Position numbers and translations under genes: made by a program. A stretch of DNA of 62,208 nucleotides from Micavibrio sp. (lineage in GTDB: Bacteria > Pseudomonadota > Alphaproteobacteria > Micavibrionales > Micavibrionaceae), in assembly GCA_002687495.1 (NCBI GenBank), contig NZAJ01000060.1, positions 1 through 62,208 of the forward strand, in the 5' to 3' direction. Positions 8,256 to 50,458 of this stretch are shown here, piece after piece. The notes below the pieces were generated by a model, which saw only the letters and a program-made list of their open reading frames with translations, was not told the DNA's origin and searched no databases. Position 1 is the stretch's first letter, and every line of letters begins with the position of its first letter.

Positions 8256-8276
8256 AAAAAGCCGATGCTTGAAAAA

Positions 8277-8351: not shown

Positions 8352-8408
8352 GCCTTCAAAAGACTTGGTGATTTATAGCGGTTTTATTTTTGAAATCAAG
8401 AGAAAAAT

Positions 8409-8693: not shown

Positions 8694-9037
8694 TATGATG
8701 GCTCCGATGGTTTAGTGATTAAATCAGCAATCAAACTTGATTCTTTTGTCTCATAGCCTTGGCTAGCTATGCCATTAAATGCCGATGCGCCAATATTGTT
8801 CTGAGGTTCTCCATATGTCATTTTTAATGTATCTGTTAGAAGGGCTATAGGAGAGAGTGTCTCAGGATTATGCTCTATTTCTTCACGTAAGCTGGCAGGG
8901 TTTAAAATACTGCATGATGGCGGAAAGCCATTTTGTATGGATTTGATTTGATGAGGTCCTAATAAGTTATCGCACTGCGCCTCTTGCGCTTGGCGCAAGG
9001 TCTCTAGGTCCTGTTGTGAAGATGAATCCCCTACCAC
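8693..9037 (-). CDS. Hypothetical protein
   Basis: 114 aa, not recognised. It starts with a glutamine-rich helix (SSSQQDLETLRQAQEAQ); the rest looks poorly ordered, with two cysteines (QCDN, SCSI). Coupled to the following 94-aa gene by a 1-bp overlap. It could be a cytosolic accessory protein. The shared operon is the only functional clue. Confidence 0.5.
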   Translation of the reverse strand: MVGDSSSQQDLETLRQAQEAQCDNLLGPHQIKSIQNGFPPSCSILNPASLREEIEHNPETLSPIALLTDTLKMTYGEPQNNIGASAFNGIASQGYETKESSLIADLITKPSEPS

Positions 9038-9188
9038 GTTTATGTCCTGCTCTTACTGGTGCCACTATAAAATGGCTTTTCTTTTATTTTTATGCCTTCA
9101 TCATAAAGCCTAAACGTTAAAATTTTCTGTATTATGTTTAGTATTTTATATAAATCTATATTTTAGGCTTAAAGGATATGAGGAGTTT

Positions 9189-9713
9189 ATGATGATTGAG
9201 GTTCAAAATATAAATGAAGAGCCGCTGCCGACGACATCCGATGATTTATTCAAGGTGCTGAAATCATTGGATATTCACTATAAGCTTTATGAGCATGAGC
9301 CTGTTTTTACGGTTGCGGAAAGTGAAGCGTTAGACCGTGATATTGAGGGCACGCCGTGTAGAAATTTATTTGTCAGAGATAAGAAAAAGCGCTCTTTTTT
9401 GATCGTTGTTGCTAATGAAACGGCTGTTGATCTTAAAAAAACGCAAGATTTATTAGAGTGTGGGCGATTATCTTTTGGTTCGGCTGAGCGCTTGTGGCAG
9501 ATGCTGGGTATTAGGCCGGGATCGGTAAATCCTTTTACGGTGCTTAATGATGCTGAGCATAAAGTTCAGGTTGTTTTGGATGGCGTTATTATGCGCTCTA
9601 GCTTGATGAATGTGCATCCTATGGATAATGCGATGACGATCAGTTTGGCGCCTGAAGATTTAATGCGATTTTTGGAGCATAGTGGCCATGAGCCCATAGT
9701 GCTTGATTTTTAG
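9189..9713 (+). CDS. YbaK/ProX-family aminoacyl-tRNA deacylase
   Basis: A 174-aa YbaK/EbsC-fold protein. Such stand-alone editing domains hydrolyse mischarged aminoacyl-tRNA (Ala- or Cys-tRNA-Pro and similar) in trans in the cytoplasm. Typical elements are LYEHEPVFTVAES near residue 35, CRNLFVRDKKK near 60, and the later GSVNPFTVLND loop near 115. The layout matches the PrdX/ProXp type. The exact substrate cannot be read from the sequence. Confidence 0.85.
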   Translation: MMIEVQNINEEPLPTTSDDLFKVLKSLDIHYKLYEHEPVFTVAESEALDRDIEGTPCRNLFVRDKKKRSFLIVVANETAVDLKKTQDLLECGRLSFGSAERLWQMLGIRPGSVNPFTVLNDAEHKVQVVLDGVIMRSSLMNVHPMDNAMTISLAPEDLMRFLEHSGHEPIVLDF

Positions 9714-9776
9714 GTGTTGGGTAGTACATATGGGACATGTATTTTACATTTCATGTGCGAATAGAAGGAGCGCGTA

Positions 9777-10715
9777 ATGATTATAGGTGGTGGTGCAGGA
9801 AGTAACCCAGAGCAACAAGGTGGTGCTGACCAGCTGATATTTGATGCTGATGTTAATAATTTTGAAGGCGATGTTTTACGTGCTTCAATGGAAAAACCTA
9901 TTCTTGTTGATTTTTGGGCACCATGGTGCGGCCCTTGTAAGCAGCTTATGCCGATTCTTGAAAAAGTTGTTCAAGCTGCTGGCGGTAAGATTAAGCTCGC
10001 GAAAGTGAATTTGGATGAAAATCCAGAGCTTGCACAAGCATTACGTGTTCAGAGCGTTCCAACTGTGTTTGCGTTTTTTAAAGGCCAACCTGTTCACGCT
10101 TTTCAGGGGGTGCAGCCAGAAAGCCAAATTCAAGCTTTTATTGGTGAGCTGGTGAAAATGGCTGATGCCAATGCGCCTGAAGCTTTGAATATCCCTGAGA
10201 GCTTAAAAGCTGCAGAAGAAGCCCTTAAAGAGGGGCGCGTTGATGTTGCGCAAGCTATATATGGCGATATCTTAGAGCAAGATGAAGATAATGTTGCGGC
10301 TTATATTGGTATGATTAGAAGCTTTATTACTGATGGCACGCCTGAACATGCGCGTGAAATGTTAGAGCATGCACCAGAAGCTATTGCTAAGGCGCAAGCT
10401 TTTATTGAAGCAAAGCCAGCTTTGGAATTAGCGGCAAAAGACCAAGGCGATGAGAGTGAGCTTGCGCCATTATTGGCGGCTGTTGAAGCAAAGCCAGATG
10501 ATCAAGATGCTCGGCTGGTTCTTGCTGAAGCGCAATTTGGTGCGGGGCAAAAAGAGCAGGCGCTAGAAACGCTTTTAGGCAGTATTGCACAAGATCGCGA
10601 GTGGAATGAGCAAGCAGCGCGTAAGCAGCTCTTAGAGTTTTTTAAGGCGCTGGGGAATGCTGATCCTTTAACGGTGGCGTATAGAAAAAAACTTTCTACC
10701 CTTTTATTCTCTTAA
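9777..10715 (+). CDS. cnoX: Thioredoxin-TPR co-chaperone CnoX (YbbN)
   Basis: 312 aa. A thioredoxin domain (residues 20-130) with the redox pair C51/C54 in WCGPC is followed by a helical TPR-like C-terminal half (about 145-312). CnoX binds unfolding proteins during oxidative stress and hands them to chaperones. The intact WCGPC indicates a redox-active form, as in Caulobacter, unlike the E. coli protein. It is followed 21 bp later by a LON-domain protein and then Trm112, a common alphaproteobacterial trio. Confidence 0.9.
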   Translation: MIIGGGAGSNPEQQGGADQLIFDADVNNFEGDVLRASMEKPILVDFWAPWCGPCKQLMPILEKVVQAAGGKIKLAKVNLDENPELAQALRVQSVPTVFAFFKGQPVHAFQGVQPESQIQAFIGELVKMADANAPEALNIPESLKAAEEALKEGRVDVAQAIYGDILEQDEDNVAAYIGMIRSFITDGTPEHAREMLEHAPEAIAKAQAFIEAKPALELAAKDQGDESELAPLLAAVEAKPDDQDARLVLAEAQFGAGQKEQALETLLGSIAQDREWNEQAARKQLLEFFKALGNADPLTVAYRKKLSTLLFS

Positions 10716-28860: not shown

Positions 28861-30078
28861 ATGTCTTTATTCACTTCATCACATTTTGTTTCTGCGTGCG
28901 CTAAGGGTTCTGATTGGCGGGTTACGGTTAAAAATATTTTGCAGCAGCTTGAAGCGATACGCAGTGATATGAATGATTTTAATCTGGGATTTATTTATAT
29001 CTCAGATCATTTATCCGAAGATGCGCCAAGTATTTTGAATATGCTTAAATCAGTTTTGGGAGTTGAAAACTGGGTTGGCAGTACTGCGATGGGTGTGTGT
29101 GGTAGCGGTGTTTCTTATATTGATGAGCCGTCTATATCTGTGATGCTGGCTCATTTTGAGGAAGAGAGTTTTGAAATATTCAATATGATAGATGAGCAGG
29201 GTTCAGGGTTGCCAAAGTCTGTTGATGCTTGGCTTAAAGATCGTTTTCCTATGTTATCTTTTGTTCACGCTGATGCGTTTTCACATGCCGATATCGGCCA
29301 GCAAATACTCGATGTCGCAGATGCTACAAATAGCTTTATGGTTGGCGGTGTTGGATCATCTCGCAATATACAATATCAATTTGCGGGCGGTGTTTTTGAA
29401 GGTGGTTTGAGCGGGGTCATCATGGATGAAAGTGTTAAGGTGGCAACGACACTTTCGCAAGGTTGCCACATTATCGCTTCAAGCCACAATGTAAGTAATA
29501 GTGATGATAATAGTATTTTTGAGTTGGATGGTGAGCGTGCATTAGATGTGTTTATGCGCGATTTGCGTTCTATGACTATAAAAATTATGGATCAAGATCC
29601 AGATGAGATTATGGTTGATCCTGATAATATCCCTGAAGAATTTCAAGCGGTTTTGAATGGTGAAGTTCATGCTGCGGTAACAGTTTCAGAATCTGACCAA
29701 AAAGATTATATGGTGCGCCACATTATAGGTATTGATCCTGATGAGGGTGCAATTTCGATAGCGGATAGTGTTGGTATTGGGGAACGTATTTTATTTGTGC
29801 GCCGAGATGAAAAAACGATGCGTGAAGATCTGGTTGAAAGCCTATTGAGCTTGAAAGCGCGCATAGAAAAGGATGAGGGGCGCTTTGAGCCTAAAGGTGG
29901 TTTGTATGTTTCTTGTATCGCGCGTGCGAATTTCGAGGCTGATAAACACCCTCATGCAGAAATGAGTGTGATTAGAGAAATTATAGGCGATATCCCATTG
30001 GCTGGTTTTTATGCAGGTGGTGAGGTTAGTAATGCACGTCTATATGGTTATACAGGTGTTTTAACCTTGTTCTTATAG
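28861..30078 (+). CDS. FIST N- and C-domain signalling protein
   Basis: 405 aa. The N-terminal FIST domain (about 30-220) runs through GSTAMGVCGSGVSY; the C-terminal FIST_C domain (about 225-390) ends in IPLAGFYAGGEVSNARLYGYTGVLTLF, its most conserved part. FIST proteins are thought to be intracellular sensors of small ligands such as amino acids, often coupled to chemotaxis or c-di-GMP. No partner domain is fused. Confidence 0.9.
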   Translation: MSLFTSSHFVSACAKGSDWRVTVKNILQQLEAIRSDMNDFNLGFIYISDHLSEDAPSILNMLKSVLGVENWVGSTAMGVCGSGVSYIDEPSISVMLAHFEEESFEIFNMIDEQGSGLPKSVDAWLKDRFPMLSFVHADAFSHADIGQQILDVADATNSFMVGGVGSSRNIQYQFAGGVFEGGLSGVIMDESVKVATTLSQGCHIIASSHNVSNSDDNSIFELDGERALDVFMRDLRSMTIKIMDQDPDEIMVDPDNIPEEFQAVLNGEVHAAVTVSESDQKDYMVRHIIGIDPDEGAISIADSVGIGERILFVRRDEKTMREDLVESLLSLKARIEKDEGRFEPKGGLYVSCIARANFEADKHPHAEMSVIREIIGDIPLAGFYAGGEVSNARLYGYTGVLTLFL

Positions 30079-30156
30079 ATTTTTAGGAATTAGCCTTGGC
30101 TTTTAGCCTTTGTGGCTTATAGTATCTATACGTGTTTTATTTACAGGGCTTTCAAT

Positions 30157-31002
30157 ATGATTAGATTTTTCCACCTTTTTGCGTTTGTCATACTCAGTAC
30201 GATTTTGCCTTATCAGGCTTATGCTCAAAGTACAGCTTTGCCTTCCATGCCAGCCCCGATTGAGAACCTCGTTGCTGAAGGGGCGCAGGTGCGTTATTTG
30301 GGTAAAGATAAGGGGTTGGATGCTTGGATTACTGTAAAGAACGGTAAAGAGCAGTATTTCTATGTTTTGCCAGATCAAAGTGCATTTGTGATGGGCTTGC
30401 TTTTTGATGATTCCGGTAAGTTGGTAACGGTGCGTCAGGTCGATCGTTTGCGTGCTCAAGGTGACGATTTGCTTGATAATTTGGCGGATATTCCTATAGA
30501 GCCGCAGCCTGCTACAGAAGCTGATGCTTTTAAGTTTAAAACACCTTCCGAGCGTTTATTTACTGATATAGAGGGGAGCAATTGGGTGGCGCTGGGGCAG
30601 CGAGATGCGCCTGTTGTGTATAGTTTTATTGACCCTCAATGTCCGCATTGTCACGCATTTATAAATGATCTGCTTTCTAGCAAGGCTTTAGAAGAGGGTA
30701 AAGTGCAGTTACGCCTTATCCCTGTTGGCTTTAAAGATGAGACGCGTGCTCAGGCAGCATATCTTATAGCTGCGCCTGATCCTCAAATGGCTTGGATGCG
30801 CCATATGGCAGGGGATGAGCAAGCATTGCCAGCGCGCTCAGATATCAATCAACAAGGTGTGCAGCGTAATTTATCAATCATGACAGCATGGAAGTTTAAT
30901 GTGACACCGATGATTATTTATCGTGCGAATGATAATAGTGTGAAGATTATTCGTGGCCGTGCTAACGATATTGCAGCTCTGCTCAATGATATTCGTCGTT
31001 AA
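30157..31002 (+). CDS. DsbG/DsbC-like periplasmic thiol:disulfide protein
   Basis: 281 aa from ATG 30157, where a good signal peptide starts (MIRFFHLFAFVILSTILP, cleavage near AYAQ). A dimerisation-like domain (about 30-125) is followed by a thioredoxin fold with CPHC in DPQCPHCHAF and a cis-proline NVTPMIIY. It probably isomerises or oxidises disulfides in the periplasm. It sits at the left edge of the secretion locus, where several exported proteins are cysteine-containing. A terminator separates it from the next gene, so co-regulation is unproven. Confidence 0.82.
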   Translation: MIRFFHLFAFVILSTILPYQAYAQSTALPSMPAPIENLVAEGAQVRYLGKDKGLDAWITVKNGKEQYFYVLPDQSAFVMGLLFDDSGKLVTVRQVDRLRAQGDDLLDNLADIPIEPQPATEADAFKFKTPSERLFTDIEGSNWVALGQRDAPVVYSFIDPQCPHCHAFINDLLSSKALEEGKVQLRLIPVGFKDETRAQAAYLIAAPDPQMAWMRHMAGDEQALPARSDINQQGVQRNLSIMTAWKFNVTPMIIYRANDNSVKIIRGRANDIAALLNDIRR

Positions 31003-32627: not shown

Positions 32628-33038
32628 ATGTCGGTTAATGCTGTATTAGCCGCGTGTTTGATGCTTGCCTCGCAAACTTATTCTGTACCGCCAGCCGTTT
32701 TAGTTGGTATTTACAAGGCTGAGGGCGGGAAGGTTGGTCAAGAAGTGCAAAATAGTAACGGCTCCTCCGATTTGGGCCCTATGCAGATTAATACAATCTG
32801 GCTGCCGAGTTTGGCAGAAAAATGGGGCGTTAAAGAGGATGTTGCAAAAAAATGGCTTAGAGATGATGCTTGCACCAATGTTAATGTCGCAGCGTGGATT
32901 TTGCGTGGGCATTTGGATGAAACGGGCAGTTTATCGCAAGCTATCGCGCATTATCATTCACGTACGCCCAAGCATGGCACGCGCTACAAAAAGCGTGTTA
33001 TTGATATCTTGAATTCCAATGGTTTAGTTAAAAAATAA
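32628..33038 (+). CDS. Specialised lytic transglycosylase (VirB1/IagB-like)
   Basis: 136 aa. A single SLT domain: IYKAEGGKVG supplies the catalytic Glu near residue 32, SSDLGPMQIN is the second motif, and AIAHYHSR the third. The N-terminus VLAACLMLASQTYSVPP may be a short signal or simply domain start. Such enzymes locally open peptidoglycan for secretion systems (VirB1 in type IVA, PilT in IncI plasmids). Its place just before dotD fits that role. Confidence 0.85.
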   Translation: MSVNAVLAACLMLASQTYSVPPAVLVGIYKAEGGKVGQEVQNSNGSSDLGPMQINTIWLPSLAEKWGVKEDVAKKWLRDDACTNVNVAAWILRGHLDETGSLSQAIAHYHSRTPKHGTRYKKRVIDILNSNGLVKK

Positions 33039-36222: not shown

Positions 36223-37659
36223 ATGAGTTCTTCATTATTTAAAACTTCATTACGTTTGTCAGTGATGTCAGCGGCTTTGGTGTCAGTATTGCCAGGCGTT
36301 GTTCACGCAGGTTTTGAATGGGTTCCAGAAAAAAAATCTTCAGCATATAATAGTGTAAAAGCACCTGAAGAAGCTGTTCAGCTTCATGTTACGCAACCAC
36401 AGCCTATTTTAAAAACGGTAGAGCCTGAAGTTGTTGTTGAGTCTGAAACAATGACACCTATGGTTATTCATGGTGATGCAATAGAAGAAGAAGTTACTGC
36501 TGCTCCATCTGATGTTATTAAGAGTCAGAATTTCTATGTTGAAGAGACTGTTGAGGTTGAAGTTTCTGCTGAGCTTCCTGAAGAAGATAAAGTTAGCCCA
36601 ACTGTTGAAGATGTGGTTAATGTAACTCCGGTCATTATGGACGAGCCGGTTATTGCAAAGCCTGTAATTATTAATTCTAGATATATCGTCGCTGAAGATG
36701 CTCCTGAAAGTGTGCGTGCGGCTTTATCACAGCAAGCAGAATATGTAGAAGTCAAAAAGGCAGAGGCGCTAACGGAAGAGCCTATCGTTGAGGTTGCAGC
36801 AGAGGATGCTGTAAGTGAAGCTGTGGTTGTTCAGCCTGTAATAGATGAGCCTGTAGCTGTTAATGCGTCAGAAGAGTATGAAGATATGTTACAAGGCTTT
36901 GGTAATGATTTGCCTTTAGCGTTAGCTATGCGTCAAATTGTTCCGGCAAAATATGCTTTTTCTTTTAGTTCTGATGTTAATGTTGGTGCTTCAGTGTCTT
37001 GGCGTGGTGGTAAGCCATGGATGAGTGTTTTGCAAGAAACGCTTAAGCCACTTGGGCTTGAAGCTCACCTTAACGGGCGCACTGTCCTAATCTCTACTGT
37101 AGATTCTACAAAGGTTATGGAAGAACCATTAGAGATTCTGAATAGTTCAGAAAAACATGAGCCTATTGCGCTTTTAGAGATGCCACAGTCGGTTGATGTT
37201 GCGAAGAGTAAAAAGATTACTGACCCTGGTCGTGTTGCATCTAAGCAACCACAAAGTACAATCAATGCATTGGTTTCTATGAAGAATATGGATCCTGCAT
37301 CTTTGAATAAAATAGAAACAGCCGCTGGTTCAGCTGAAGTGGAGCGTACTCCACGTGTTATTTTATCAAAAAAAAACAGTAAATTTACAAGCCAGAGCTG
37401 GAATGCAAGCAAAGGTGATTCCTTAAAGGACACACTCTCCTCTTGGTCCGAAACAGGGGCTTATGAGTTGGTATGGGAATCTGATTATGATTATAGTTTA
37501 GCTTCAGATTTCAATTCTACAGGTGCGTTCGCTGAGGCGCTTGCTTCGATGATGCAGGTTGCTTTAAAGGAAGGTGAGGCACCAGTTTTCTTTTTTGTAT
37601 CTTCAAAAGGCAAGGAAGATAGCGCGAAATTGATTATCAAGGATAAGCCTGCAAGCTAA
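36223..37659 (+). CDS. Exported protein with a TcpQ/secretin-like C-terminal domain
   Basis: 478 aa. Signal peptide 1-29 (ending VVHA). Residues 35-215 are Val/Glu/Pro-rich with repeated VEEPVxV-like units, probably disordered. Two small folded domains follow: about 225-295 (PLALAMRQIVPAKYAFSFSS to GRTVLIS), and a TcpQ-like domain at about 385-470 (SWNASKGDSLKDTLSSWSET, then YELVWESDYDYSL). TcpQ-type domains are linked to outer-membrane secretins and IncI PilL. A partner of DotD, DotC and DotH in the outer-membrane complex is inferred. Last plus-strand gene before the divergent paralog block. Confidence 0.7.
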   Translation: MSSSLFKTSLRLSVMSAALVSVLPGVVHAGFEWVPEKKSSAYNSVKAPEEAVQLHVTQPQPILKTVEPEVVVESETMTPMVIHGDAIEEEVTAAPSDVIKSQNFYVEETVEVEVSAELPEEDKVSPTVEDVVNVTPVIMDEPVIAKPVIINSRYIVAEDAPESVRAALSQQAEYVEVKKAEALTEEPIVEVAAEDAVSEAVVVQPVIDEPVAVNASEEYEDMLQGFGNDLPLALAMRQIVPAKYAFSFSSDVNVGASVSWRGGKPWMSVLQETLKPLGLEAHLNGRTVLISTVDSTKVMEEPLEILNSSEKHEPIALLEMPQSVDVAKSKKITDPGRVASKQPQSTINALVSMKNMDPASLNKIETAAGSAEVERTPRVILSKKNSKFTSQSWNASKGDSLKDTLSSWSETGAYELVWESDYDYSLASDFNSTGAFAEALASMMQVALKEGEAPVFFFVSSKGKEDSAKLIIKDKPAS

Positions 37660-37686
37660 GCGCTGCTACTATATTTCTCATATAAG

Positions 37687-39534
37687 TTATTTAATAGGCT
37701 CGTCGAATGCAGCGTTGATGCGCTCTATTTCAGGTATCAGATCAACTTGGATCATACCGGAAGCTAGCATTTCTTGCCTTTGAAGTGCTTCAAAATGATC
37801 GCGTTGCTGCATAAGTGATATTGCGTCTAATGTAGCTATGATACGGTTCACATTCACTGGCTTATCATATAAATTTGTATAGAAATCAGGTGATTGGTAT
37901 ATTTTCTTAGTGAGCACATCCATTTGCGCATAATAGCTAGGCTCTGTTCCGATAAGAGCTTCAATTTCCGTGTCATCTAGTCCGAATTCCCTCATAAGGG
38001 TTTTCATATGCGCCCATCCAGGGATAACAGGATCTGAGCCTGTTGTATCAGCTGGTTTTGCTTTTGCTTTCATTGCTACTTGTTGCGCAAAGCTGTTATG
38101 GGCAATGTTATTGAGAGCGATATAGCGGCGTGCATCCATGTATGCATAAGGATTTTTTCCTGCTCTTTCTGGGTTCATATCTTTATAAGCGTTAGGCCAA
38201 TAAAGATTTTTTGCAAGAGCAATAACGTCTGCTTCATCTTCTGTGGAAATGTTATCTGTGAAATCGACATTAAGTGTATAATGTTTATCAAGCGTTCTGA
38301 GGATATCAATATCTTTATTCATGCGCAGGTTATCGCTCGCGCCCAAATCACTTCTATAGGTGTTATTTGAAGGGTTTCCATCTTGATCATGCTCGCACAT
38401 GTAATCTAGCCCGCCATTATTGTTTGTTGGATCACAATATAGAGTTCTAAATTGCTCAAGGCGTGCTTTCATAGAAGAGCTGTCACCAGCAAAAGAGCTG
38501 CTATTTTGAGTGTCGGTATAATGATCCATTAAAATTGTGTTGAAGGCCTGAAGATTAGCGTCTTTGCTTTCTTCTGTGCTGGCTAAAGTCTTCATATATG
38601 AGCCATAGTTACATAATTGCTTGCTAGGATGATAATCTTTATTCGCTTTTGCATTTAAAACTTGCATATCACGTTGCGCTTCTAATGTTTCTTTAGCATC
38701 CAGGAAAGTGCCAATCATTAATGTGTGATGCATGATGGCTTGTGTCAGTTGATTTGCAGCGGCTTGCATAGGTTCAACAAAATTGCTTACTAGATTATTT
38801 ACATGTGTCGATAAATCACCGCCACACCAGCTTATTTGTGGATTACCGCAAAAGCCGTTTTGAGTGCTGTTAACCTGGCTATTTGTAGGGCCGCCTCCGC
38901 CTGGCGCACTTTGTATTGTAATCACAGGGGATCGCGTCAGGGATTGAATGTCTTGTGAAGGGTCAGTTGAGAAAAACGCTATTTTATAGCTTGTATTATC
39001 ACGTTCCTCAAAGATCACGTCACTTATGTTTTTTTCTTCAAATAATCCTGCCCAATCGCTTTGTGTTTCATATTTATTATCATCGGATTGTATAACAATT
39101 CTTGTGAAGCTGGGTGTTCCAGAACCTTCTATGGTGAGCTCGCCACTTTTTGGATTATGGCTCATCATGATGTTCATTGTTTGCTCTTCCTCATCAATAA
39201 GGAAATTGTATTTTACATCATATTCAGCATTCGAAAAATCTACAGTCATGGGTAAGGTTAAGTTCCCATTTTCATCTGCAGTAGCTAAGGCTGTGAATGG
39301 GCTTACGTTTTTTGATTGAATGAGGTATGTCACTTTAGCGTGAGGTTTAAAGCCTGTTAGCGTTGCAAATATACGTTCATTATCTTTTTTATTTTCAACC
39401 TCTTCTGTACCTGCTTCGTCGAAGAGAGCCGCTTGCACGGGTGTGTTTACGCCATAGATCGTTGTGACACCTATTGAGCATAAGGCCGTTGCAACAAGGA
39501 GGTAATTTTTATTCTTTTTAATGAAAGAATGCAT
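37687..39534 (-). CDS. Secretion-locus paralog family member 1 (with extra N-terminal domain)
   Basis: 615 aa from ATG 39534; an earlier in-frame ATG (39600) overlaps the neighbour. Signal peptide MHSFIKKNKNYLLVATALC ending near VQAA. An extra beta-rich domain (about 35-205), Ig-like in appearance (TLTGFKPHAKVTYLIQ), precedes the family core. The core carries NKDYHPSKQLCNYG, YCDPTNNN, LDYMCEHDQDG and VLTKKIYQSPDFYTNLYD. The closest relative is the adjacent 463-aa gene, with strong nucleotide similarity. Family and function unknown; exported and probably surface-associated. Confidence 0.7.
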   Translation of the reverse strand: MHSFIKKNKNYLLVATALCSIGVTTIYGVNTPVQAALFDEAGTEEVENKKDNERIFATLTGFKPHAKVTYLIQSKNVSPFTALATADENGNLTLPMTVDFSNAEYDVKYNFLIDEEEQTMNIMMSHNPKSGELTIEGSGTPSFTRIVIQSDDNKYETQSDWAGLFEEKNISDVIFEERDNTSYKIAFFSTDPSQDIQSLTRSPVITIQSAPGGGGPTNSQVNSTQNGFCGNPQISWCGGDLSTHVNNLVSNFVEPMQAAANQLTQAIMHHTLMIGTFLDAKETLEAQRDMQVLNAKANKDYHPSKQLCNYGSYMKTLASTEESKDANLQAFNTILMDHYTDTQNSSSFAGDSSSMKARLEQFRTLYCDPTNNNGGLDYMCEHDQDGNPSNNTYRSDLGASDNLRMNKDIDILRTLDKHYTLNVDFTDNISTEDEADVIALAKNLYWPNAYKDMNPERAGKNPYAYMDARRYIALNNIAHNSFAQQVAMKAKAKPADTTGSDPVIPGWAHMKTLMREFGLDDTEIEALIGTEPSYYAQMDVLTKKIYQSPDFYTNLYDKPVNVNRIIATLDAISLMQQRDHFEALQRQEMLASGMIQVDLIPEIERINAAFDEPIK

Positions 39535-39538
39535 TGCT

Positions 39539-40930
39539 TTAGTTTTCTCCCACGCGGCTTTGGTCACTAATTTCTTGCTCAAGTTTTTCCTGAAGATCAA
39601 CGACAGCCAGTTCTAGAAGGACAGATAGGTTTGCTTCATATCGCAAGTAGCTTTTGAACATATCAAATTTTTGCATTAGCCCAATTGCCTGCATAGCAAC
39701 CTTTTTACGTTCAACGTTTGCAGGTTTGTCATATAGGTTTGTGTAGAAATCAGGGTTTTGATAGATTTTCTTTGTCAGGACTTCCATTTGCGCATTATAG
39801 CTTGGCCCTGTATCAGGACTTCCTGCGACAGTTTTCCCAAAATATGGTTCAAAATTATCAGGTGTTGCGCCATCTTGAATGCCGAGTTCGTTAAGGATGG
39901 ATTTCATATAATCTCTTGCGCCAGCTGTTCCATTTGCTTTCATTGAAACTATTGAATCAAAAGAGTTTTTGGCAACATTGAGCTTTGCTAGAACAGCACG
40001 TGCATCTAGATATTGCCTATGGATAGCTTCGAAATCATCTGAACGTATACCGCCTTTATCTGCTAATGCGCCTGTCATGCGCTGGAAGACATCGTAGCCA
40101 TAAAGATTGTCTGCCAATGCCAAGACATCTTCTTCATGTTCTGTCAGTGTGGCGTTAGTGAAATCAATATTCAAAGTCCAAGGGAATTCTACTGTTCGTA
40201 CATAATCAATGTCTTTATTCATGCGCAGGTTATCAGTTGCGCCTAAATCGCTTCTATAGGTATTGTTTGAAGGATCTCCATCCTGGTCATGTTCACATAG
40301 GTAATCTAGACCAGCATTATTGTTTGTTGGATCACAGAATTTTTCTCTAAATTGCTTTATTCTTGCTGCTTTATCACTTACGTTCCCGCCAGCAGCAGCG
40401 CTATTAGCGTTTCCTAATATTCTGTCTTGGAAGCGCTGAGACAAGACATGGGCTGTAAGTTCAGATTTTCTCTCTGAGGCGGCCAAACTTCTTGTTGTTG
40501 AGCCTATTTCACACATGCCTTCGCTTGGTTGATAATCTTTATTTGTTTGTGCTTTTATTTTCTGAAGGGTTCTTTGTGTTTCCAGCTGATTTTTTGCGTC
40601 TAAAAAGGTTGCAAAGATAGCTGTTTGGTAGTTGGCGACAGCACTCATTTGGTCTGCAAAGAGCATCATAGCCGGAAGAATATTGTCCTCCCAAAATACT
40701 GATGTGTACCAAGTTTCTAATGTTGAAAACTCTGTTGTTACCCGATTTTCAATGAGAGCTTGTGTTCTCGGCCATTCAGCATTGGATGTGCTGCTGATTG
40801 TGAACGCGCATTCACAACAAGCATTTGCGCTTTTAGGTGCGAAAGGTGTTATCGCAGCGGCTAGCATGGCTGTAAATACAATATTACGTGTTAGCTTTTT
40901 CATTGTCATTTTTGTGTGCTTTTTCATCAT
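39539..40930 (-). CDS. Secretion-locus paralog family member 2
   Basis: 463 aa, signal peptide ending near KSANA, followed at once by a Cys cluster (CCECAF). Helical core ILPAMMLFADQMSAV, FLDAKNQLETQR, NKDYQPSEGMCEIG, then FCDPTNNN, LDYLCEHDQDG and YNAQMEVLTKKIYQN. The four conserved cysteines suggest periplasmic disulfides, consistent with the Dsb-like protein of the locus. Four bp separate it from member 1; same operon. No known domain recognised. Confidence 0.7.
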   Translation of the reverse strand: MMKKHTKMTMKKLTRNIVFTAMLAAAITPFAPKSANACCECAFTISSTSNAEWPRTQALIENRVTTEFSTLETWYTSVFWEDNILPAMMLFADQMSAVANYQTAIFATFLDAKNQLETQRTLQKIKAQTNKDYQPSEGMCEIGSTTRSLAASERKSELTAHVLSQRFQDRILGNANSAAAGGNVSDKAARIKQFREKFCDPTNNNAGLDYLCEHDQDGDPSNNTYRSDLGATDNLRMNKDIDYVRTVEFPWTLNIDFTNATLTEHEEDVLALADNLYGYDVFQRMTGALADKGGIRSDDFEAIHRQYLDARAVLAKLNVAKNSFDSIVSMKANGTAGARDYMKSILNELGIQDGATPDNFEPYFGKTVAGSPDTGPSYNAQMEVLTKKIYQNPDFYTNLYDKPANVERKKVAMQAIGLMQKFDMFKSYLRYEANLSVLLELAVVDLQEKLEQEISDQSRVGEN

Positions 40931-40931
40931 A

Positions 40932-42326
40932 TTATTGACTTCCTAGCTTTGAATTTTGATCGCGCGTGTATTTTTTTAAGCGTGATGAGAGTAGAACTGA
41001 CATGGCCAATTCTTGCCTCAGCTCACTTTCATATATGGCCCTATCCAGCATGAGCTCAAATGCTTTCAAGGCAGCGCTTTTTCTCTTTATATTGGTGGGT
41101 GTGTCATAGAGATCTGCATAAAATTTTGGGTTTTGATATAGTTTTTTTGCTAGAACTTCTAATGTGGCATATTGACCTAAATCAGCGCTTTCTGTACCCC
41201 AATCATCTGCGTTAATCCCTAGGTAATCAACGACTTCATTGCTACCATATCCTAAATTTTGAATGGCTTTACCAAAGAATTGATTTGTTTCGATAGGGGT
41301 GGAGCCACCTGAAACAACGGGTGTGCCTAATGATTTCATGCCGACAATGTGATTGTAAGAATTTTCAGCAACGCTGCGTTGTGCAACAATGGAGCGCAGT
41401 TCTAAATAACGCTCTGCCATTGTAGGGTCTTTAAGTGCATTTGCACTTATATTTCGTGTAATAATGTTGTGGCCGTATAGATTATTCCCGAGGCTCAATA
41501 TATCAATTTCTTCATCTGAATTAGCCCATTCTGGGCCGTATATATTTATAAGCCTTTTGTTTTCCACCGCTCGAGAGTAGTCAATATCAATATTTGTCCG
41601 CTCTTGACTGTAATAGGGCCTCGAACTAGCGCTTTTGGTAGCCGTTGATAGGCATATAGAAGAAAGGCCAGAGTCAACCATCCCGTCTCGCCAGTTATTG
41701 TCAGTTGGATCGCAATAGACCTTTTTAAAGAGATCCCACCGTGTTTTTTTATCTCCATCCGCACTATTAGCACCTGCGGCATTTTTTGTGCCGAGATGGC
41801 GTATCATTTGGCGATGACTTAACGCTTCAGTTGTAGCTTTATTTGCAATTTCGGTATGCGTTAAGGATCTAACTGTTGTCCCGAAGGTACAGAAACTTTG
41901 GCTTGGTATATAATCTTTGAATGCGTCATAGCGCATCTCTGTGATTTCGCGTTTTGTTTCGCTTAAATGCTTTGCATCAAATAGTTTCCCTATCTCAAAG
42001 ATTGTCTCTGTGCCCTCAGCGATCGTCTTTTCAATGACTTCTTGTAGGCCAGGTACAAATTCATTTTTCAAGAAATCATCACTAGCCCAGCCACGGTGGT
42101 CGTTAAATTGATCACTGATATCTTCTTGAATTTCTGGCGTATAATCGCTGTGATTTTGCGGTATAACATTTTCCGATACTACTGCTGAGCAATCAGCGCT
42201 TGTGCAGCCTACGCAACATGCTGCATTGGCTCTATTTAAGTTTGTAGAGTTGCTACCGGCAAAGATTAATGCGGCTAAAAATGTGTGAAGAGCTAAATGT
42301 TTAATTTTATAATCTCTCATCGCCAC
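40932..42326 (-). CDS. Secretion-locus paralog family member 3
   Basis: 464 aa. Signal peptide ending near NRANA, then ACCVGCTSADC, a second Cys-rich start. Core: FKDYIPSQSFCTFG, YCDPTDNN, LSSICLS, LGNNLYGHNI, SVAENSYNHIVGMKSLG, and LEVLAKKLYQNPKFYADLYD. Closer to member 4 than to 1 and 2, and it overlaps member 4 by 10 bp. Unknown function; its orientation is opposite to that of all known secretion genes in the locus. Confidence 0.7.
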   Translation of the reverse strand: MAMRDYKIKHLALHTFLAALIFAGSNSTNLNRANAACCVGCTSADCSAVVSENVIPQNHSDYTPEIQEDISDQFNDHRGWASDDFLKNEFVPGLQEVIEKTIAEGTETIFEIGKLFDAKHLSETKREITEMRYDAFKDYIPSQSFCTFGTTVRSLTHTEIANKATTEALSHRQMIRHLGTKNAAGANSADGDKKTRWDLFKKVYCDPTDNNWRDGMVDSGLSSICLSTATKSASSRPYYSQERTNIDIDYSRAVENKRLINIYGPEWANSDEEIDILSLGNNLYGHNIITRNISANALKDPTMAERYLELRSIVAQRSVAENSYNHIVGMKSLGTPVVSGGSTPIETNQFFGKAIQNLGYGSNEVVDYLGINADDWGTESADLGQYATLEVLAKKLYQNPKFYADLYDTPTNIKRKSAALKAFELMLDRAIYESELRQELAMSVLLSSRLKKYTRDQNSKLGSQ

Positions 42327-43840
42327 ACCTCGTTAGGTCTGTCTTTGACGTGGGATTGTAGTCTTGTCGATAATAGAACTGACATTGCCATTTCTCTACG
42401 AATTTGGCTATTGTAGATTTCACGATCGAGCATAAGCTCTATTGCTTGAAGGGCAGCACTTTTTCTTGTTGTGTTCGCCGGGCTTTCATAGAGCTGCGCA
42501 TAAAAAACTGGGTTTTGATATATTTTCTTGGCGAGTAATTCTAAAGTTGCGTAATAGCTTAATGGAAGCTCTTCGTCAAAATAGCCGTTGCTAGAGGCGA
42601 AGGGGCCAATATAATCTTGTATTTCTATGTCTGTGTTAGGGATACCTAAATCTTCTAATAATTTCCCAATATATTCTGAAGGTACATAGCCTGTAGCATT
42701 TGATGCTTTTAGGCCGACGAGATGGTTAAATGAATTCTCAGCAACGGAGCGCTTTGCGGTTAGGGCGCGTAGTGCAAGATAACGATCCGCCATAGAAGGG
42801 TCTGAAATATCCTGTGCGCTTATATTGCGGCTAGAGATAATATTGTGGCCATATAAATTGTTTCCTAAGCTTAAAATGTCGATTTCTCGTAAGGAGTCGA
42901 CCCAGTTTGCACCATCGAGATCTAACGTTCTTTTGCTGCTGCTACCTAATGCGCGTGCATAATCGACATCTAGATTAATGCGATCTACATTGTCAGGATT
43001 GGTGCCAGTGTGGTTGCAAACTGAGCTTAAACCTGAATTTGCGATACCATCAAGCCAATTATTATCTTGTGGGTCGCAATATACCGTACGGAATAGATTC
43101 CATCTATTCTCAAGGTCTTGTTCGGTGTTTTGAGCGCCCCCGATACCTTTTGTGCCTAATTGCCGCGCGCTTTGACGTGCGGTTAAAACGCGTGCAGTGA
43201 CCTTCACATTTTGTTCAGCATGGGCCACAGACCTTACGGCTGTGCCGATGGTGCAAAAACCTTCGCTAGGCTGATAGTCTTTATAGGCATCATGTTGAAG
43301 TGTCTGCATTAGGCGCTGCGTTTCCATGTGGTCTTTAGCGTCAAGGAATTTTCCAACAGAAAATATTTGTGACATACCCACTGCTGTAAGTTGTTCTGCC
43401 ATTTTTTGCATAGCAGGGAGTATGTGGGCTTCAAAAAATGTTTCTTGCAGCCAATCTTTATGATCGCTGAACTCTTCGCCTATGTGCCCTATGATGCCGC
43501 TGGTTGAGGTGCAGCCATTAAATGTATATGTACCAACCATTGCTGTTCCGCCGTATAAGCAAACTGAATGGATGTTAGATATTGCAAACTGTGATGCACC
43601 ACAATCAAGAGGGCTACAGGCAGTAGAGGGGTATGTTCCGCATACGGCTGAGCAAATGCCGCCTGTCGTTGTTGTTCCTGTTGCGGAGGTCAGGTTTGGT
43701 GTAAGCGTTAGTATGAAGGAGGCAGCGTAAAGGAGCGCTTTTCTTGATTTTATGACGAAAGCGTGATTTTTTTTACAGATGTTTTTAATTCGCTCAGAGC
43801 GCGTTGCTTTCAATTTTTTGCCCACCACCATTAAGCTCAC
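42317..43840 (-). CDS. Secretion-locus paralog family member 4
   Basis: 507 aa. Signal/anchor region at about 30-55 (ALLYAASFILTLTPNLTSA), possibly with a start further in than the first ATG. A loop with several cysteines (GGICSAVCGTYPSTACSP) precedes the core EAHILPAMQKMAEQLTAVG, YKDYQPSEGFCTIG, YCDPQDNN, LSSVCNH, NNLYGHNI, and LELLAKKIYQNPVFYAQLYE. First gene of the minus-strand block; transcription starts from the region shared with dotI. Confidence 0.7.
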   Translation of the reverse strand: MSLMVVGKKLKATRSERIKNICKKNHAFVIKSRKALLYAASFILTLTPNLTSATGTTTTGGICSAVCGTYPSTACSPLDCGASQFAISNIHSVCLYGGTAMVGTYTFNGCTSTSGIIGHIGEEFSDHKDWLQETFFEAHILPAMQKMAEQLTAVGMSQIFSVGKFLDAKDHMETQRLMQTLQHDAYKDYQPSEGFCTIGTAVRSVAHAEQNVKVTARVLTARQSARQLGTKGIGGAQNTEQDLENRWNLFRTVYCDPQDNNWLDGIANSGLSSVCNHTGTNPDNVDRINLDVDYARALGSSSKRTLDLDGANWVDSLREIDILSLGNNLYGHNIISSRNISAQDISDPSMADRYLALRALTAKRSVAENSFNHLVGLKASNATGYVPSEYIGKLLEDLGIPNTDIEIQDYIGPFASSNGYFDEELPLSYYATLELLAKKIYQNPVFYAQLYESPANTTRKSAALQAIELMLDREIYNSQIRREMAMSVLLSTRLQSHVKDRPNEVWR

Positions 43841-43987
43841 TCATAAATGTAATGATACCATAGTTTTTATAACCTTGTCGCGTTAGAAAAATTAAAAATT
43901 TATATGTCTTTCTGTCTTACGCCTTGAGAAGTCATTCATTTTAGTTCAGAATAATGGCTGTATTTTTTATATTTATATTGATTCGAT
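43841..43987. promoter_or_regulatory. Divergent promoter region, paralog block / dotI
   Basis: 147 AT-rich bp between the minus-strand paralog operon and the plus-strand dotI operon. Both should be driven from here, so the two groups could share control. I did not find a clear operator. Confidence 0.45.
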
Positions 43988-44707
43988 ATGGCCTCTCAAA
44001 AACAAAAGAAAAATCAAAAAGACGTTTCACAAGTTGATCAGGTTGATGGTGCTGAAGAGGCTGTTGCTGATGCGCAGCCTGAAGATACAAGCGGATTGGG
44101 CCGCGTTGTTATTCGTAATGAATTTTACCGTGATGGCTATCGTAGCCTTCTAAAGTTGGCCTTAATTCAAGGTGTTGTTATTATTTTTATGATCGGGATT
44201 GTGTTCGCTATCGTACAATCTCGCGAACCTGAAAATAGGTATTTTGCTACAACTGAAGATGGGCGTTTAGTGCCTATGGTCCCATTGAATCAGCCTAATT
44301 TGAGTGCGCCTGCGTTGATGTCCTGGTCTGCTCAGGCTGTGACGCAGGTTATGACGTTTGGTTTTAATGACTACCGTACACGTTTGCAGGAGGCGTCAAA
44401 TAACTTTACTAAGCGTGGATGGGAGAGCTTTACGCAGGCCTTGCAACGTTCACGTATTATTGAATTGGTAGAAGCGAAGCAGCAGGTTGTAACAGCTGCG
44501 CCTACGGGCGCGCCGATCATTGTGAATGAGGGCTTGATTGCTGGTCGTTATCAATGGCAAATCCAAATACCAATTGTTTTAAGTTATCAAGCGGGTGCGC
44601 AGACACGTTCGGATAATCTTTTGGTAACCCTTGTGGTCGTTCGTGTTCCTAGGCTGGAAAGCCCGAATGGGGTTGGTATTGAGCAATGGATTGCACGCCC
44701 TCGTTAA
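43988..44707 (+). CDS. dotI: Type IVB secretion protein DotI (IcmL)
   Basis: 239 aa. A charged cytoplasmic tail, then EFYRDGYRSLLKLALIQGVV, the IcmL hallmark, runs into one inner-membrane helix (about 55-75). The periplasmic NTF2-like/VirB8-like domain fills the rest (LNQPNLSAPALMSW, FNDYRTRLQ, RWQIQIPIVLSYQ-type pattern). IcmL/DotI is the TraM counterpart of IncI plasmids and stabilises the inner-membrane complex. Confidence 0.92.
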   Translation: MASQKQKKNQKDVSQVDQVDGAEEAVADAQPEDTSGLGRVVIRNEFYRDGYRSLLKLALIQGVVIIFMIGIVFAIVQSREPENRYFATTEDGRLVPMVPLNQPNLSAPALMSWSAQAVTQVMTFGFNDYRTRLQEASNNFTKRGWESFTQALQRSRIIELVEAKQQVVTAAPTGAPIIVNEGLIAGRYQWQIQIPIVLSYQAGAQTRSDNLLVTLVVVRVPRLESPNGVGIEQWIARPR

Positions 44708-48709: not shown

Positions 48710-50458
48710 ATGAGGTTAGAAAGAGTTTTAAATATTAAACTTTTTTTAGGCATTTCTTTAGCCTTGCTATTCATTTATAGCTTACCGGCGTATGCTCAAG
48801 ATGTTAATGATGTCGTTGATAATATTGGCGAATCTGCGGAAGGCTTACCTGGCTTAATCTCGCCCATGCTATACATCATAGGTATCCTTTTGGGTATTTT
48901 AGGTGTAATCAAACTTAAAGAACATGTAGAAAATCCCAATCAAGTTAAGTTAAGTGTGCCTGTTATTAGGCTTATTGCAGGTGGAGCACTCTTTGCTATA
49001 CCAACTGTTTATGAGGCCGTTCAAAATACGATCGGCGTTTCTGCGCTAGATGTGGAGAATGGATCTTCATCTTCTTTCGCATTTGCTTTGTCAGGTATGG
49101 TTGCTGCTATCAATGCGGCTTCATTTGGGGTTCTGCAAGATCTTACGGCGCTTACCAATAGTGCGTTAGAAAGTGTCAAGCGAGTCCCTTATCTAATTTC
49201 TGCGGCATCTTACCTTTTAGGTCTTATGATCACAGTGATTGGCGTACTTAAAATCAAGGATCACGTTGAAAATCCTGAACAAGTACAGATAAAAGAAGGT
49301 GTCGTACGCCTACTTACAGGTGGTGCCCTTTTGGCCATGCCGACGATTTATAATGCTATGTTTGAGCTATTCGACGGCGCTGGCGGTAGTATCGTAAGTG
49401 CCATTGGTAGTGCTATGGCTTCAGTTGGATTTTTATATTCAAGCTATGCTGGTACAATTTGTGACCCTACAGGTAGTACTATTGGTGCAGTTGGCTCTGC
49501 GTTAGGTTTAACATCAAGCGGGCCCACATTTGGGGACATGATCTGTGGCTTGGTATTGCATAGTGCTGGCTTACCTATATTTTTTAGCAGCATTTCTTAT
49601 ATTCTGGGCTTAGCCCTTGGTGTTTGGGGTGTGTTGAAGCTAAGGGATCATGCACTTAACCCTGCTCAAGTTAATTTATGGGAAGGTATGTCACGCTTAA
49701 TTGCTGGCGGTGCTTTTTTTGCTCTGCCTGTCGTCGTTGAAGTGATGCGTAATTCTGTTGGTTCTTCTCTTATGACAGCAACAACCATGATTATGCCCAG
49801 AACAGGTGGTGGTCTGGCATCAACATTTTCTAGTATGATTAGTTCTATAGGCTCATTTCTGGGTTTAGGCGGTGGTGGCGGTGGTGGCACGCCATGTTCT
49901 TCGGGTAATGTTAGTTTGGATTGTATGTTGATCTTATTCACTGATGATATTTTAGCCTCAGTCCATGTTGCTCTTAACTTCTTTACATTCTGTGCGGGTA
50001 GTATTTTGATAATGATCGGTATCTCACGCCTTATCAAAAGCGCGCAAGATGGTCCGCGAGGTCCAGGTGGAATTGGAACTATTATAACTTTTGTTGTTGG
50101 AGGCGCATTATTATCGTATAATGAGTTAATGGTTGCGTTTACGTCTACATTTACAGGGATGCCTGTATCTTTAGGTCAAGCAACTTTAGCCTATAGTACT
50201 GGTATGGGAGCAGATGAACTTGGTAAGGCAAATCTTGTTATTGTAGCGATAATGAATTTCGTTCTGATAATTGGTTTGGTTAGCTTTGTTCGAGGTTTCT
50301 TTATCATACGAGGCGTCGCTGAGGGTAATCAACAGGCCTCGATCATGGCCGGAATAACACATATAGTCGCTGGTACTTTAGCTGTGAATTTAGGTTCGCT
50401 CATTAATGCGATCCAAACGACACTAGGTATCACGAATTACGGAATTACATTTTCTTAA
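48710..50458 (+). CDS. Fusion of three IcmD/DotP-like modules to an IcmC/DotE-like domain
   Basis: 582 aa. Signal peptide/helix 1-30 (ending AYAQD). Three tandem modules of two helices with the IcmD core follow: IKLKEHVENPNQV near residue 70, LKIKDHVENPEQV near 181, LKLRDHALNPAQV near 309, each followed by an RLIAGGA-type helix. The last part (about 415-575) has a degenerate fourth loop (SRLIKSAQDGPRGPG) and then the IcmC-like end SFVRGFFIIRG, THIVAGTLAVNLGSL and TTLGI. IcmC and IcmD are separate short inner-membrane proteins in Legionella. A polytopic platform protein is inferred. Confidence 0.82.
   Translation: MRLERVLNIKLFLGISLALLFIYSLPAYAQDVNDVVDNIGESAEGLPGLISPMLYIIGILLGILGVIKLKEHVENPNQVKLSVPVIRLIAGGALFAIPTVYEAVQNTIGVSALDVENGSSSSFAFALSGMVAAINAASFGVLQDLTALTNSALESVKRVPYLISAASYLLGLMITVIGVLKIKDHVENPEQVQIKEGVVRLLTGGALLAMPTIYNAMFELFDGAGGSIVSAIGSAMASVGFLYSSYAGTICDPTGSTIGAVGSALGLTSSGPTFGDMICGLVLHSAGLPIFFSSISYILGLALGVWGVLKLRDHALNPAQVNLWEGMSRLIAGGAFFALPVVVEVMRNSVGSSLMTATTMIMPRTGGGLASTFSSMISSIGSFLGLGGGGGGGTPCSSGNVSLDCMLILFTDDILASVHVALNFFTFCAGSILIMIGISRLIKSAQDGPRGPGGIGTIITFVVGGALLSYNELMVAFTSTFTGMPVSLGQATLAYSTGMGADELGKANLVIVAIMNFVLIIGLVSFVRGFFIIRGVAEGNQQASIMAGITHIVAGTLAVNLGSLINAIQTTLGITNYGITFS

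What the first reader, a model, noticed from the sequence alone, without database searches (positions are those of the whole stretch)
37687..43840. Four tandem paralogs of an unrecognised exported family inside the secretion locus
Four genes of about 463-615 aa, all with N-terminal export signals, share an ordered set of motifs: ILPAM, FLDAK, KDYxPSxxxC, a CDPxxNN box, a later G-L-x-x-x-C site and KKxYQxPxFYxxLY. Members 1/2 and 3/4 form closer pairs, implying two duplication rounds. They occupy the interval between icmT and dotI, on the opposite strand, where IncI plasmids have traL. I recognise no domain. They could be extracellular subunits, pilus or adhesin parts, or secreted substrates specific to this lineage.
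Basis: partly seen in the sequence, partly recalled or inferred. Interest (0 to 1): 0.88.

Follow-up and report, generated by a model that had tools for sequence, protein, structure and literature searches.

The report
Multiplied tip subunits of a secretion channel
Four neighbouring genes in a Micavibrio-like bacterium encode relatives of IcmX/TraW, the subunit that sits on the DotA channel of type IVB secretion machines; here both proteins exist as sets of gene copies, which suggests a channel built from several different subunits.

Summary
In detail: four tandem exported paralogs lie divergently from dotI. They belong to the TraW/IcmX (VirB5-type) superfamily of type IVB secretion, the partner of the DotA channel. 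Evidence: profile-profile E=7e-8 over 305 columns against alphaproteobacterial plasmid TraW, controls far below; bridging HMM hits; shared D-29-C-59-C spacing; and, for two modelled members, the Legionella DotA-IcmX protochannel chain as best VIA match (Z 13.1, 12.6). New is the multiplication. Arrays in the same family hold 2-5 genes; 14 genomes carry three old classes; the window's gamma member has two Ig-like domains. DotA is a tandem set of three in 27 of 28 family genomes read and four in the other. One cysteine-flanked loop varies between genomes yet is matched between beta and gamma paralogs within a genome (0.60 versus 0.38; 0 of 5000 permutations), strongly in 5 of 14. Best reading: a heteromeric DotA-IcmX channel/tip. 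Membership is near certain; mixed assembly and target contact are inferred, and copy numbers of the two partners do not pair strictly.

The parts
37687..39534 (-). gamma-class IcmX/TraW-like subunit (P0001, 615 aa): two N-terminal Ig-like domains, then the IcmX-like core
38899..39381 (-). two Ig-like beta-sandwich domains of the gamma subunit (residues 52-212)
   Evidence: AlphaFold2 model and Foldseek/VIA matches to Ig-fold and adhesin domains
38296..38442 (-). CDP loop of the gamma subunit (about residues 365-413), matched to the loop of the beta subunit
39539..40930 (-). beta-class IcmX/TraW-like subunit (P0002, 463 aa)
40196..40342 (-). CDP loop of the beta subunit (residues 197-245; C199 and C212)
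40932..42320 (-). alpha-class IcmX/TraW-like subunit, copy 2 (P0003, 462 aa)
42317..43840 (-). alpha-class IcmX/TraW-like subunit, copy 1 (P0004, 507 aa), nearest to dotI
43841..43987 (.). divergent intergenic region between the array and dotI, with promoter-like matches on both strands (weak evidence only: 27 found in 37400-44100 against 16.8 expected)
43988..44707 (+). dotI/icmL, divergent neighbour of the array
   Evidence: NF038072 E=6e-60, PF11393 E=1e-68; same place in 24 of 30 arrays of the family
36223..37659 (+). TcpQ-domain protein facing the dotI-distal end of the array
   Evidence: PF10671 E=1e-11; a relative on the opposite strand beyond the array in 14 of 30 (many stretches do not reach that far)

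Best explanation
The four genes encode divergent IcmX/TraW (VirB5-type) subunits. SHOWN by sequence and predicted fold: membership of that superfamily; three old classes (alpha, beta, gamma) in 14 genomes; tandem sets of three DotA genes in the same family; two Ig-like domains on the window's gamma member; one loop that is hypervariable between genomes but matched between beta and gamma within a genome. INFERRED: after Sec export the subunits assemble in the periplasm on DotA as the upper part of the central channel (protochannel or stalk), as reviews describe for IcmX in Legionella. Where Legionella builds a DotA-IcmX pentamer (reviews) from one DotA and one IcmX gene (recalled), this lineage most likely builds a mixed assembly from several DotA and several IcmX paralogs. 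When the machine fires, the gamma Ig-like domains and the shared cysteine-flanked loop of beta and gamma would lie at the outer end and touch the target cell, probably bacterial prey. My step-wise odds are about 0.95 for membership, 0.85 for a place on the DotA channel, 0.55-0.6 for a mixed (heteromeric) assembly and 0.4 for target contact by the loop.
For: Membership: hhalign of 37 members (A2) against 13 alphaproteobacterial plasmid TraW-like proteins (A4) gives probability 94.6, pairwise E=7.2e-8, score 66.7 over 305 columns; the best of 60 column-shuffled controls scores 22.9 and the reversed alignment 15.6. The HMM of A4 alone finds family members of G027 (E=2e-7) and G049 (E=9e-17). The five best hits of NCBIfam conj_TraW (NF033888) in 57 genomes, G027, G056, G050, G049 and G043 at E 1.5e-6 to 0.005, all fall in family genes; it is the only NCBIfam hit of L136:9292-10518 (E=2e-6) and L145:5102-8068 (E=1.1e-4). 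Spacing: D-29-C-59-C-13-C (medians) in 70 members; D-29-C-59-C-10-C in 12 of 13 plasmid TraW; 27/59/14 in R64 TraW, where the Asp column holds Thr. Synteny. Co-multiplication: DotA count 3 in 27 of 28 family genomes read, 4 in one; 1 in 12 of 16 order outgroups read, 2 in three, 4 in one. DotA classes. Loop. Gamma Ig-like domains.
Against: No assembly was seen. The numbers do not pair strictly: G027 has 2 IcmX-like genes but 3 DotA; G037 and G055 have one DotA but at least three and two separate family frames; G036 has two family genes and one DotA; G029 has 5 family genes and no DotA match. Synteny is not universal: in 6 of 30 family arrays no DotI is in the stretch, and in the outgroups G043, G049, G050 and G056 the members listed lie away from the best DotI. 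Three different subunits do not fit a fivefold ring simply. The DotA classes are clean only near the window; in G013, G014, G018, G027, G031 and G035 the later copies cluster with each other, and in G008, G009, G022 and G023 the first two do. The loop match is weak (0.25-0.5) in G007, G010, G016, G030 and G033. No member reaches the NF033888 cut-off (27 of 100 bits at best); none of the 37 members of A2 hits it alone at E<=1; R64 TraW alone against A2 is weak (probability 1.2, E=0.046). The tool warns that Z up to about 13 can be a common arrangement of helical proteins. In Foldseek the chain ranks first for P0002 but with E=3.8e-3, and fourth for the gamma model (E=6.2e-4) behind Ig-type rows. 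The long N-terminal helix (52-133) is not covered by the IcmX match.
Confidence: 0.6

Rival explanations
1. Interchangeable tips: each IcmX class forms its own homopentamer on its own DotA, and the cell chooses among several channel types by target or growth phase.
For: Several old classes on both sides; extensions and loops differ between classes.
Against: The copies form co-directional arrays in the contig loci and the 30 arrays of the family, and the three own DotA frames adjoin (stop-to-stop frames overlap or lie 19 bases apart), which points to joint expression. Three DotA are kept in 27 of 28 family genomes read, unlike a free menu. Beta and gamma of one genome often share a matched loop, which separate homomers would not need. 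Copy numbers of DotA and IcmX-like genes do not match one to one in G027, G036, G037 or G055.
Confidence: 0.22
2. Former IcmX subunits that have become secreted surface adhesins or effectors and no longer belong to the channel.
For: The gamma member carries two Ig-like domains with adhesin rows among the matches; a shortened IcmX is found in Legionella culture supernatant (review passage); in some outgroups members lie away from dotI.
Against: Aligned members keep the IcmX core with three cysteines in 70 of 70; in 24 of 30 family arrays dotI is the divergent neighbour; no TraW over the cut-off exists in the 57 genomes and the five best NF033888 hits are family genes, so the array is the only IcmX source seen, though a very divergent one is not excluded.
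Confidence: 0.1
3. One reading: a lineage-specific exported family without known relatives.
For: No Pfam or NCBIfam match of note and no PDB sequence match of note for the four proteins.
Against: Profile-profile comparison, bridging HMM hits, cysteine spacing, synteny and two structure matches all point to TraW/IcmX.
Confidence: 0.04
4. A rival for the loop only (it can hold together with any of the above): the matched beta/gamma loop is a by-product of gene conversion between neighbouring genes and has no function.
For: Codons for identical residues agree more often inside the loop than outside in 7 of 7 genomes examined, out of the 14 (for example 0.72 against 0.55).
Against: The tract is one short segment, and alpha copies, next to beta, show no effect there; silent agreement is only modestly raised (by 0.05 to 0.29) while amino acid identity is 0.62-0.95, so the match outlasts silent drift.
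Confidence: 0.3

Closest known systems
IcmX of the Legionella Dot/Icm system (DotA-IcmX protochannel, PDB 9ngy)
   Same: Best VIA structure match of two members (Z 13.1 and 12.6); exported; partner DotA is present.
   Different: One gene in Legionella (recalled) against 2-5 paralogs here; DotA single there (recalled) against three here; no sequence match to the solved chain; Ig-like extension on the gamma member.
TraW of IncI plasmids and of alphaproteobacterial type IVB plasmids (NF033888)
   Same: Profile match E=7e-8 to the alphaproteobacterial ones; D-29-C-59-C spacing; on plasmids traW also lies opposite dotI, 1.9-3.4 kb away with small genes between.
   Different: Below the NF033888 cut-off; several classes in one genome; the DotA genes lie on another contig (C40), not two genes away as on the plasmids.
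VirB5 (TraC, TrwJ) stalk/tip proteins of type IVA systems
   Same: A review table lists TraW and IcmX in the VirB5 row and TraY and DotA in the VirB6 row, both pentameric (passage).
   Different: No sequence or structure match to VirB5 was obtained here; the link runs through IcmX.
Multiplied VirB6 of Rickettsia (rvh)
   Same: A VirB6-type channel protein multiplied in an alphaproteobacterial group (five copies; passages of PMC2653234).
   Different: Type IVA, and it lacks VirB5 altogether; here the VirB5-type partner is multiplied too.

Membership tests
TraW/IcmX superfamily (VirB5-type) | Profile-level homology over the whole core | tested here: met
   hhalign A2 against A4: pairwise E=7.2e-8, 305 columns; best of 60 shuffles 22.9 against 66.7; A4 HMM hits to G027 and G049 members
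TraW/IcmX superfamily (VirB5-type) | IcmX fold | tested here: met
   9ngy_AP1 best VIA match of two models, Z 13.1 and 12.6; FP1 of the entry is DotA, so AP1 is taken to be IcmX by exclusion; N-terminal helix 52-133 not covered
TraW/IcmX superfamily (VirB5-type) | Conserved Asp and three Cys at fixed spacing | tested here: met
   29/59/13 (medians; ranges 29, 57-59, 13-32; 70 of 70 keep the three Cys) against 29/59/10 in 12 of 13 plasmid TraW; the 13th (Aminobacter) lacks two of the Cys; R64 27/59/14 with Thr in the Asp column
TraW/IcmX superfamily (VirB5-type) | N-terminal export signal | tested here: met
   hydrophobic segment in 4 of 4, plausible A-X-A site in 3 of 4; no dedicated signal-peptide program was run
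TraW/IcmX superfamily (VirB5-type) | A DotA/TraY partner in the genome | tested here: met
   three DotA in the own genome, contig C40; 55 of 57 genomes have DotA, G029 with five family genes being an exception
TraW/IcmX superfamily (VirB5-type) | Pentameric assembly on DotA | not testable with these tools
   no complex prediction or experiment available
IncI-type TraW proper (equivalog NF033888) | Score over the curated cut-off of 100 bits | tested here: not met
   best 27.2 bits among the members scanned; 0 of 57 genomes over the cut-off; so not filed as the TraW equivalog
VirB5 of type IVA systems | Sequence or fold match to VirB5/TraC/TrwJ | tested here: inconclusive
   none among the listed matches; absence from the list excludes nothing

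The most novel reading that the evidence does not exclude
Micavibrionaceae, a family that includes predators of other bacteria, run a chromosomal type IVB machine whose central DotA-IcmX channel is an asymmetric mixture of three DotA and usually three or more IcmX paralogs. Its outer end carries Ig-like domains and a hypervariable loop that is kept alike between two subunit classes within a genome, i.e. a target-recognition tip that evolves in concert.
Probability: 0.3. Interest if true: 0.87.

Novelty: new variant of a known kind. Interest (0 to 1): 0.7.

Why it matters
The DotA-IcmX channel was described only recently, as a pentamer (review passages). A natural lineage in which both partners exist as sets of paralogs makes subunit asymmetry, gating and tip recognition testable by comparison. 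It also shows a type IVB system across genomes of the Micavibrio family, whereas the M. aeruginosavorus ARL-13 genome paper saw no evidence of a type III or IV system (passage; whether ARL-13 itself carries the locus was not checked here), and suggests a delivery route for epibiotic predation. The loop that varies between genomes but matches between two subunits marks the residues to test first.

Tried and rejected
Direct family searches of the four proteins in Pfam and NCBIfam, and PDB sequence searches, gave only weak rows or none; the ascorbate peroxidase rows (E 0.5 and above) were rejected as chance. tblastn of P0002 against plasmids: no match. Of the two plasmid loci opened first, the Bosea one has an annotated DotI but, by its annotation, no recognisable rest of the cluster nearby and was dropped; the Roseomonas one gave the lead. 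The PDB profile search with plasmid TraW gave only chance rows. NF033888 against the 37 members of A2 one by one: no hit at E<=1; the link needs profiles or bridging members. G027's next gene (781 aa) was considered as a third copy and rejected: it is FlgK-like. The 738-aa gene divergent from dotI in G039 (L142) was rejected by eye on its sequence, which reads as flagellar hook-associated (recalled). In G042 and G054 (L132, L137) I looked beside dotI by eye and found no IcmX-like gene. Two genes beside dotI in G040 gave only marginal hhalign scores (E=0.0011 each) and were not counted. Rfam at gathering scores: nothing in 37500-44100.

What was left out of counts. The tree holds all 126 f1 ORFs found, contig-end fragments included. 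G025 was not read for its array. The '30 arrays' leave out G001 and G020 (cut by contig ends) and G003, G032 and G034 (none found). The loop test used 14 genomes that have all three classes, one copy of each class: in G010, G011, G016, G021 and G033 a second beta-like copy was left out, and in G000, G002, G010, G011, G021, G030 and G033 one alpha copy of two; the alpha of G016 is a 311-aa fragment. G004 and G006 are close relatives, and the permutations do not correct for kinship. DotA was counted only in fetched stretches (28 of 36 family genomes, 16 of 21 order genomes). The codon comparison used 7 of the 14 genomes.

A strict one-to-one pairing of three DotA with three IcmX was considered and rejected as a claim.
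Full report
WHAT IS THERE. The four minus-strand genes are real, tandem and co-directional, at 37687-39534, 39539-40930, 40932-42320 and 42317-43840. All pairs are significantly related (E from 9e-133 to 3e-44). The own assembly shows no other copy at E<=1. The neighbours belong to a type IVB system: DotD, DotC/TraI and DotB, IcmT/TraK, a TcpQ-domain protein, DotI, DotH, DotG, DotF-like, TraQ-like and DotN/IcmJ.

DISTRIBUTION. A profile of the four finds the family in 46 of 57 genomes, own included: 33 of 36 of the same family (f1) and 13 of 21 of the rest of the order. In a sample of 289 genomes of the class 3 matched, all f1, one of them the own genome. A scan of public genome contigs kept 72 loci. 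Their titles read Micavibrio, Alphaproteobacteria, or Pseudomonadota/Proteobacteria; one short contig is labelled Verrucomicrobia (L055, probably mis-binned). With the window they hold 304 family ORFs. Of the 57 genomes 53 have a strong DotI (E<1e-40); 45 of these 53 have the family, and of the 4 without a strong DotI only G020 (84% complete) has it.

ARRANGEMENT. In 30 f1 genomes with a readable array the copy number is 2 to 5, and 29 of 30 have at least 3; only G027 has 2. G016's count adds one copy on a second contig. In 24 of 30 a DotI gene lies next to the array on the opposite strand; in G008, G012, G017, G022, G024 and G028 the stretch shows none. A TcpQ relative lies on the opposite strand beyond the dotI-distal end in 14 of 30. 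In outgroups G036 (two copies) and G046 (one) the genes are also divergent from dotI, but in G043, G049, G050 and G056 the members listed lie away from the best DotI match. In G048 and G051 a single gene beside dotI matches the family profile weakly (hhalign E=7e-4 and 4e-5). One copy per machine may be the older state; this was not tested on a species tree.

WHAT IT IS. No curated family matched the four proteins. The lead came from a Roseomonas plasmid with a type IVB cluster, whose exported protein P0006, two genes before DotA/TraY, hits NCBIfam conj_TraW at E=5.5e-7. Thirteen such plasmid proteins were aligned (A4). Against the 37-member family alignment (A2) hhalign gives probability 94.6 and pairwise E=7.2e-8 over 305 columns. 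The score of 66.7 compares with 22.9 for the best of 60 column-shuffled controls and 15.6 for the reversed alignment. The A4 profile alone finds family members of G027 (E=2e-7) and G049 (E=9e-17). The five best hits of NF033888 in the 57 genomes (E 1.5e-6 to 0.005) are family genes, and for two members it is the only NCBIfam hit. R64 TraW alone is too distant (E=0.046), but its weak alignment still pairs the cysteine region. The spacing D-29-C-59-C is shared: 29/59/13 as medians in 70 family members, 29/59/10 in 12 of 13 plasmid TraW, 27/59/14 in R64, where the Asp column is Thr. In Roseomonas, Beijerinckia and Acetobacter plasmids the traW gene likewise lies on the strand opposite dotI, 1.9-3.4 kb from it (the last is annotated TraW).

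FOLD. The beta member P0002 was modelled with an alignment of 70 (pLDDT 85) and the gamma member with 51 (pLDDT 77.5). For both, the best VIA match is chain AP1 of 9ngy, the DotA-IcmX protochannel of Legionella: Z 13.1 over 248 residues and Z 12.6 over 244. For P0002 the next row has Z 6.6. In Foldseek it is first for P0002 (E=3.8e-3, probability 1.00) and fourth for the gamma model (E=6.2e-4) behind Ig-type rows. Chain FP1 of the same entry is DotA, so AP1 is taken to be IcmX by exclusion. The tool cautions that Z up to about 13 can arise among helical proteins; it is the agreement with the sequence evidence that makes the case. Reviews place TraW, IcmX and VirB5 together and DotA, TraY and VirB6 together, both pentameric (passages of PMC12624023, PMC12857230 and PMC12981334). 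The primary paper of the structure was not held.

CLASSES. A tree of 126 f1 members shows three old classes in the genomes nearest the window: alpha (next to dotI; local support 1.0), beta (1.0) and gamma (last in the array; 0.998). P0003 and P0004 are alpha, P0002 beta, P0001 gamma. Fourteen genomes have all three. Other f1 branches have their own further copies. Of 34 array-final genes (single fragments included) 19 have at least 218 residues before the core, against 5 of 92 other genes with 208 or more. In P0001 this extension is modelled as two Ig-like beta-sandwich domains (residues 52-212); other gamma members were not modelled.

DOTA. DotA is multiplied too. Of 28 f1 genomes whose DotA stretch was read, 27 have three in tandem and one has four; of 16 order outgroups 12 have one, 3 have two and 1 has four. 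The own genome has them on contig C40 (L131 frames 1552-4566, 4548-7421, 7441-10221, stop to stop). Near the window they fall into three collinear classes; in G013, G014, G018, G027, G031 and G035 the later copies cluster together, and in G008, G009, G022 and G023 the first two do. The match with IcmX copy number is loose: see G027, G029, G036, G037 and G055 under evidence against.

THE MATCHED LOOP. Between the second and third conserved cysteines and just after them lies a loop that differs strongly between genomes in length and sequence. Within a genome beta and gamma often carry nearly the same loop. Own beta-gamma identity averages 0.60 against 0.38 to other genomes' gamma; in 8 of 14 genomes own gamma is closer than any other genome's beta; 0 of 5000 label permutations reach the observed mean. 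The match is strong (0.82-0.92) in 5 of 14 (G000, G004, G005, G006, G012) and weak (0.25-0.50) in 5 (G007, G010, G016, G030, G033). A scan along the protein shows the effect in windows 175-219 and 205-249 (+0.13 and +0.22); elsewhere the difference is at most +0.03, though some of these small differences are also rare among permutations (for example 8 and 9 of 5000), as shared ancestry would give. Alpha shows none in the loop with either partner. Silent positions are only modestly more alike inside the loop in the 7 genomes compared. Gene conversion probably copies the segment and selection then keeps it alike. Two subunits that share a surface or an interface would explain this.

MECHANISM. 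The most economical reading is that these are the IcmX-type subunits of a DotA channel that has become a mixed assembly, with gamma Ig-like domains and the matched loop at the outer end. Membership is shown as far as sequence and predicted fold can show it. Position on DotA follows from the family. Mixed assembly and target contact are inference. That the target is bacterial prey rests on the lifestyle of cultured Micavibrio (start of the abstract of PMC3189940 in the listing, passages) and is not tested here. The length of G027's single contig equals the length I recall for M. aeruginosavorus strain EPB; I could not verify this (listing only).

PRINT. Searches for Micavibrio with type IV secretion (7 papers), Micavibrionales with secretion system, DotA with IcmX and paralog and a mixed query (15 of 460 listed) showed no title or abstract start that reports this; apart from the passages cited, these papers were not read. 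The library holds open-licence papers only, so this is weak evidence of absence. The multiplied VirB6 of Rickettsia (PMC2653234, passages) is the nearest precedent I found; that system lacks VirB5.

Noticed in passing
G000 contig C40 (L131): 1552-4566, 4548-7421, 7441-10221, + strand: Three tandem DotA genes on another contig than the main type IVB locus; three in 27 of 28 family genomes read.
   Followed up: yes
window 30112-31002 +: DsbG-like thiol:disulfide interchange protein (E=9e-36) beside the type IVB genes; a possible folding helper for the cysteine-bearing subunits.
   Followed up: partly
window 28861-30078 +: FIST-domain protein (PF08495/PF10442) next to the cluster.
   Followed up: no
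window 32628-33038 +: TrbN/IagB-like lytic transglycosylase upstream of dotD (TrbN model E=3e-26, below its cut-off).
   Followed up: no
window 36223-37659 +: TcpQ-domain protein with a long acidic N-terminal part between icmT and the array; a relative sits beyond the array in 14 of 30 family genomes; role unknown.
   Followed up: partly
window 48710-50458 +: 582-aa membrane protein with DUF6750 at one end and TraQ similarity at the other; similar segments seem, by eye, to recur inside it, as if several small subunits were fused.
   Followed up: no
window 38296-38442 and 40196-40342; L133:7980-9266: The matched loops are rich in Asp/Asn; the single-copy relative in L133 has a weak EF-hand-like match in its loop region (E=0.006, below cut-off). 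Possible calcium site.
   Followed up: partly
G029 (single-contig genome): Five family genes but no DotA match at E<=0.001, although it is one contig (89% complete); either loss or an assembly fault.
   Followed up: no
L055: A short contig labelled Verrucomicrobia carries three family ORFs; probably a mis-binned contig.
   Followed up: no
G003, G034, G041: Genomes with DotA but lacking both a strong DotI and the array: loss of the main locus as a unit, or assembly gaps.
   Followed up: partly
G050 (L143, L144), G049 (L145): Order outgroups with family members away from dotI, some as long solitary genes of 818 and 989 aa.
   Followed up: partly
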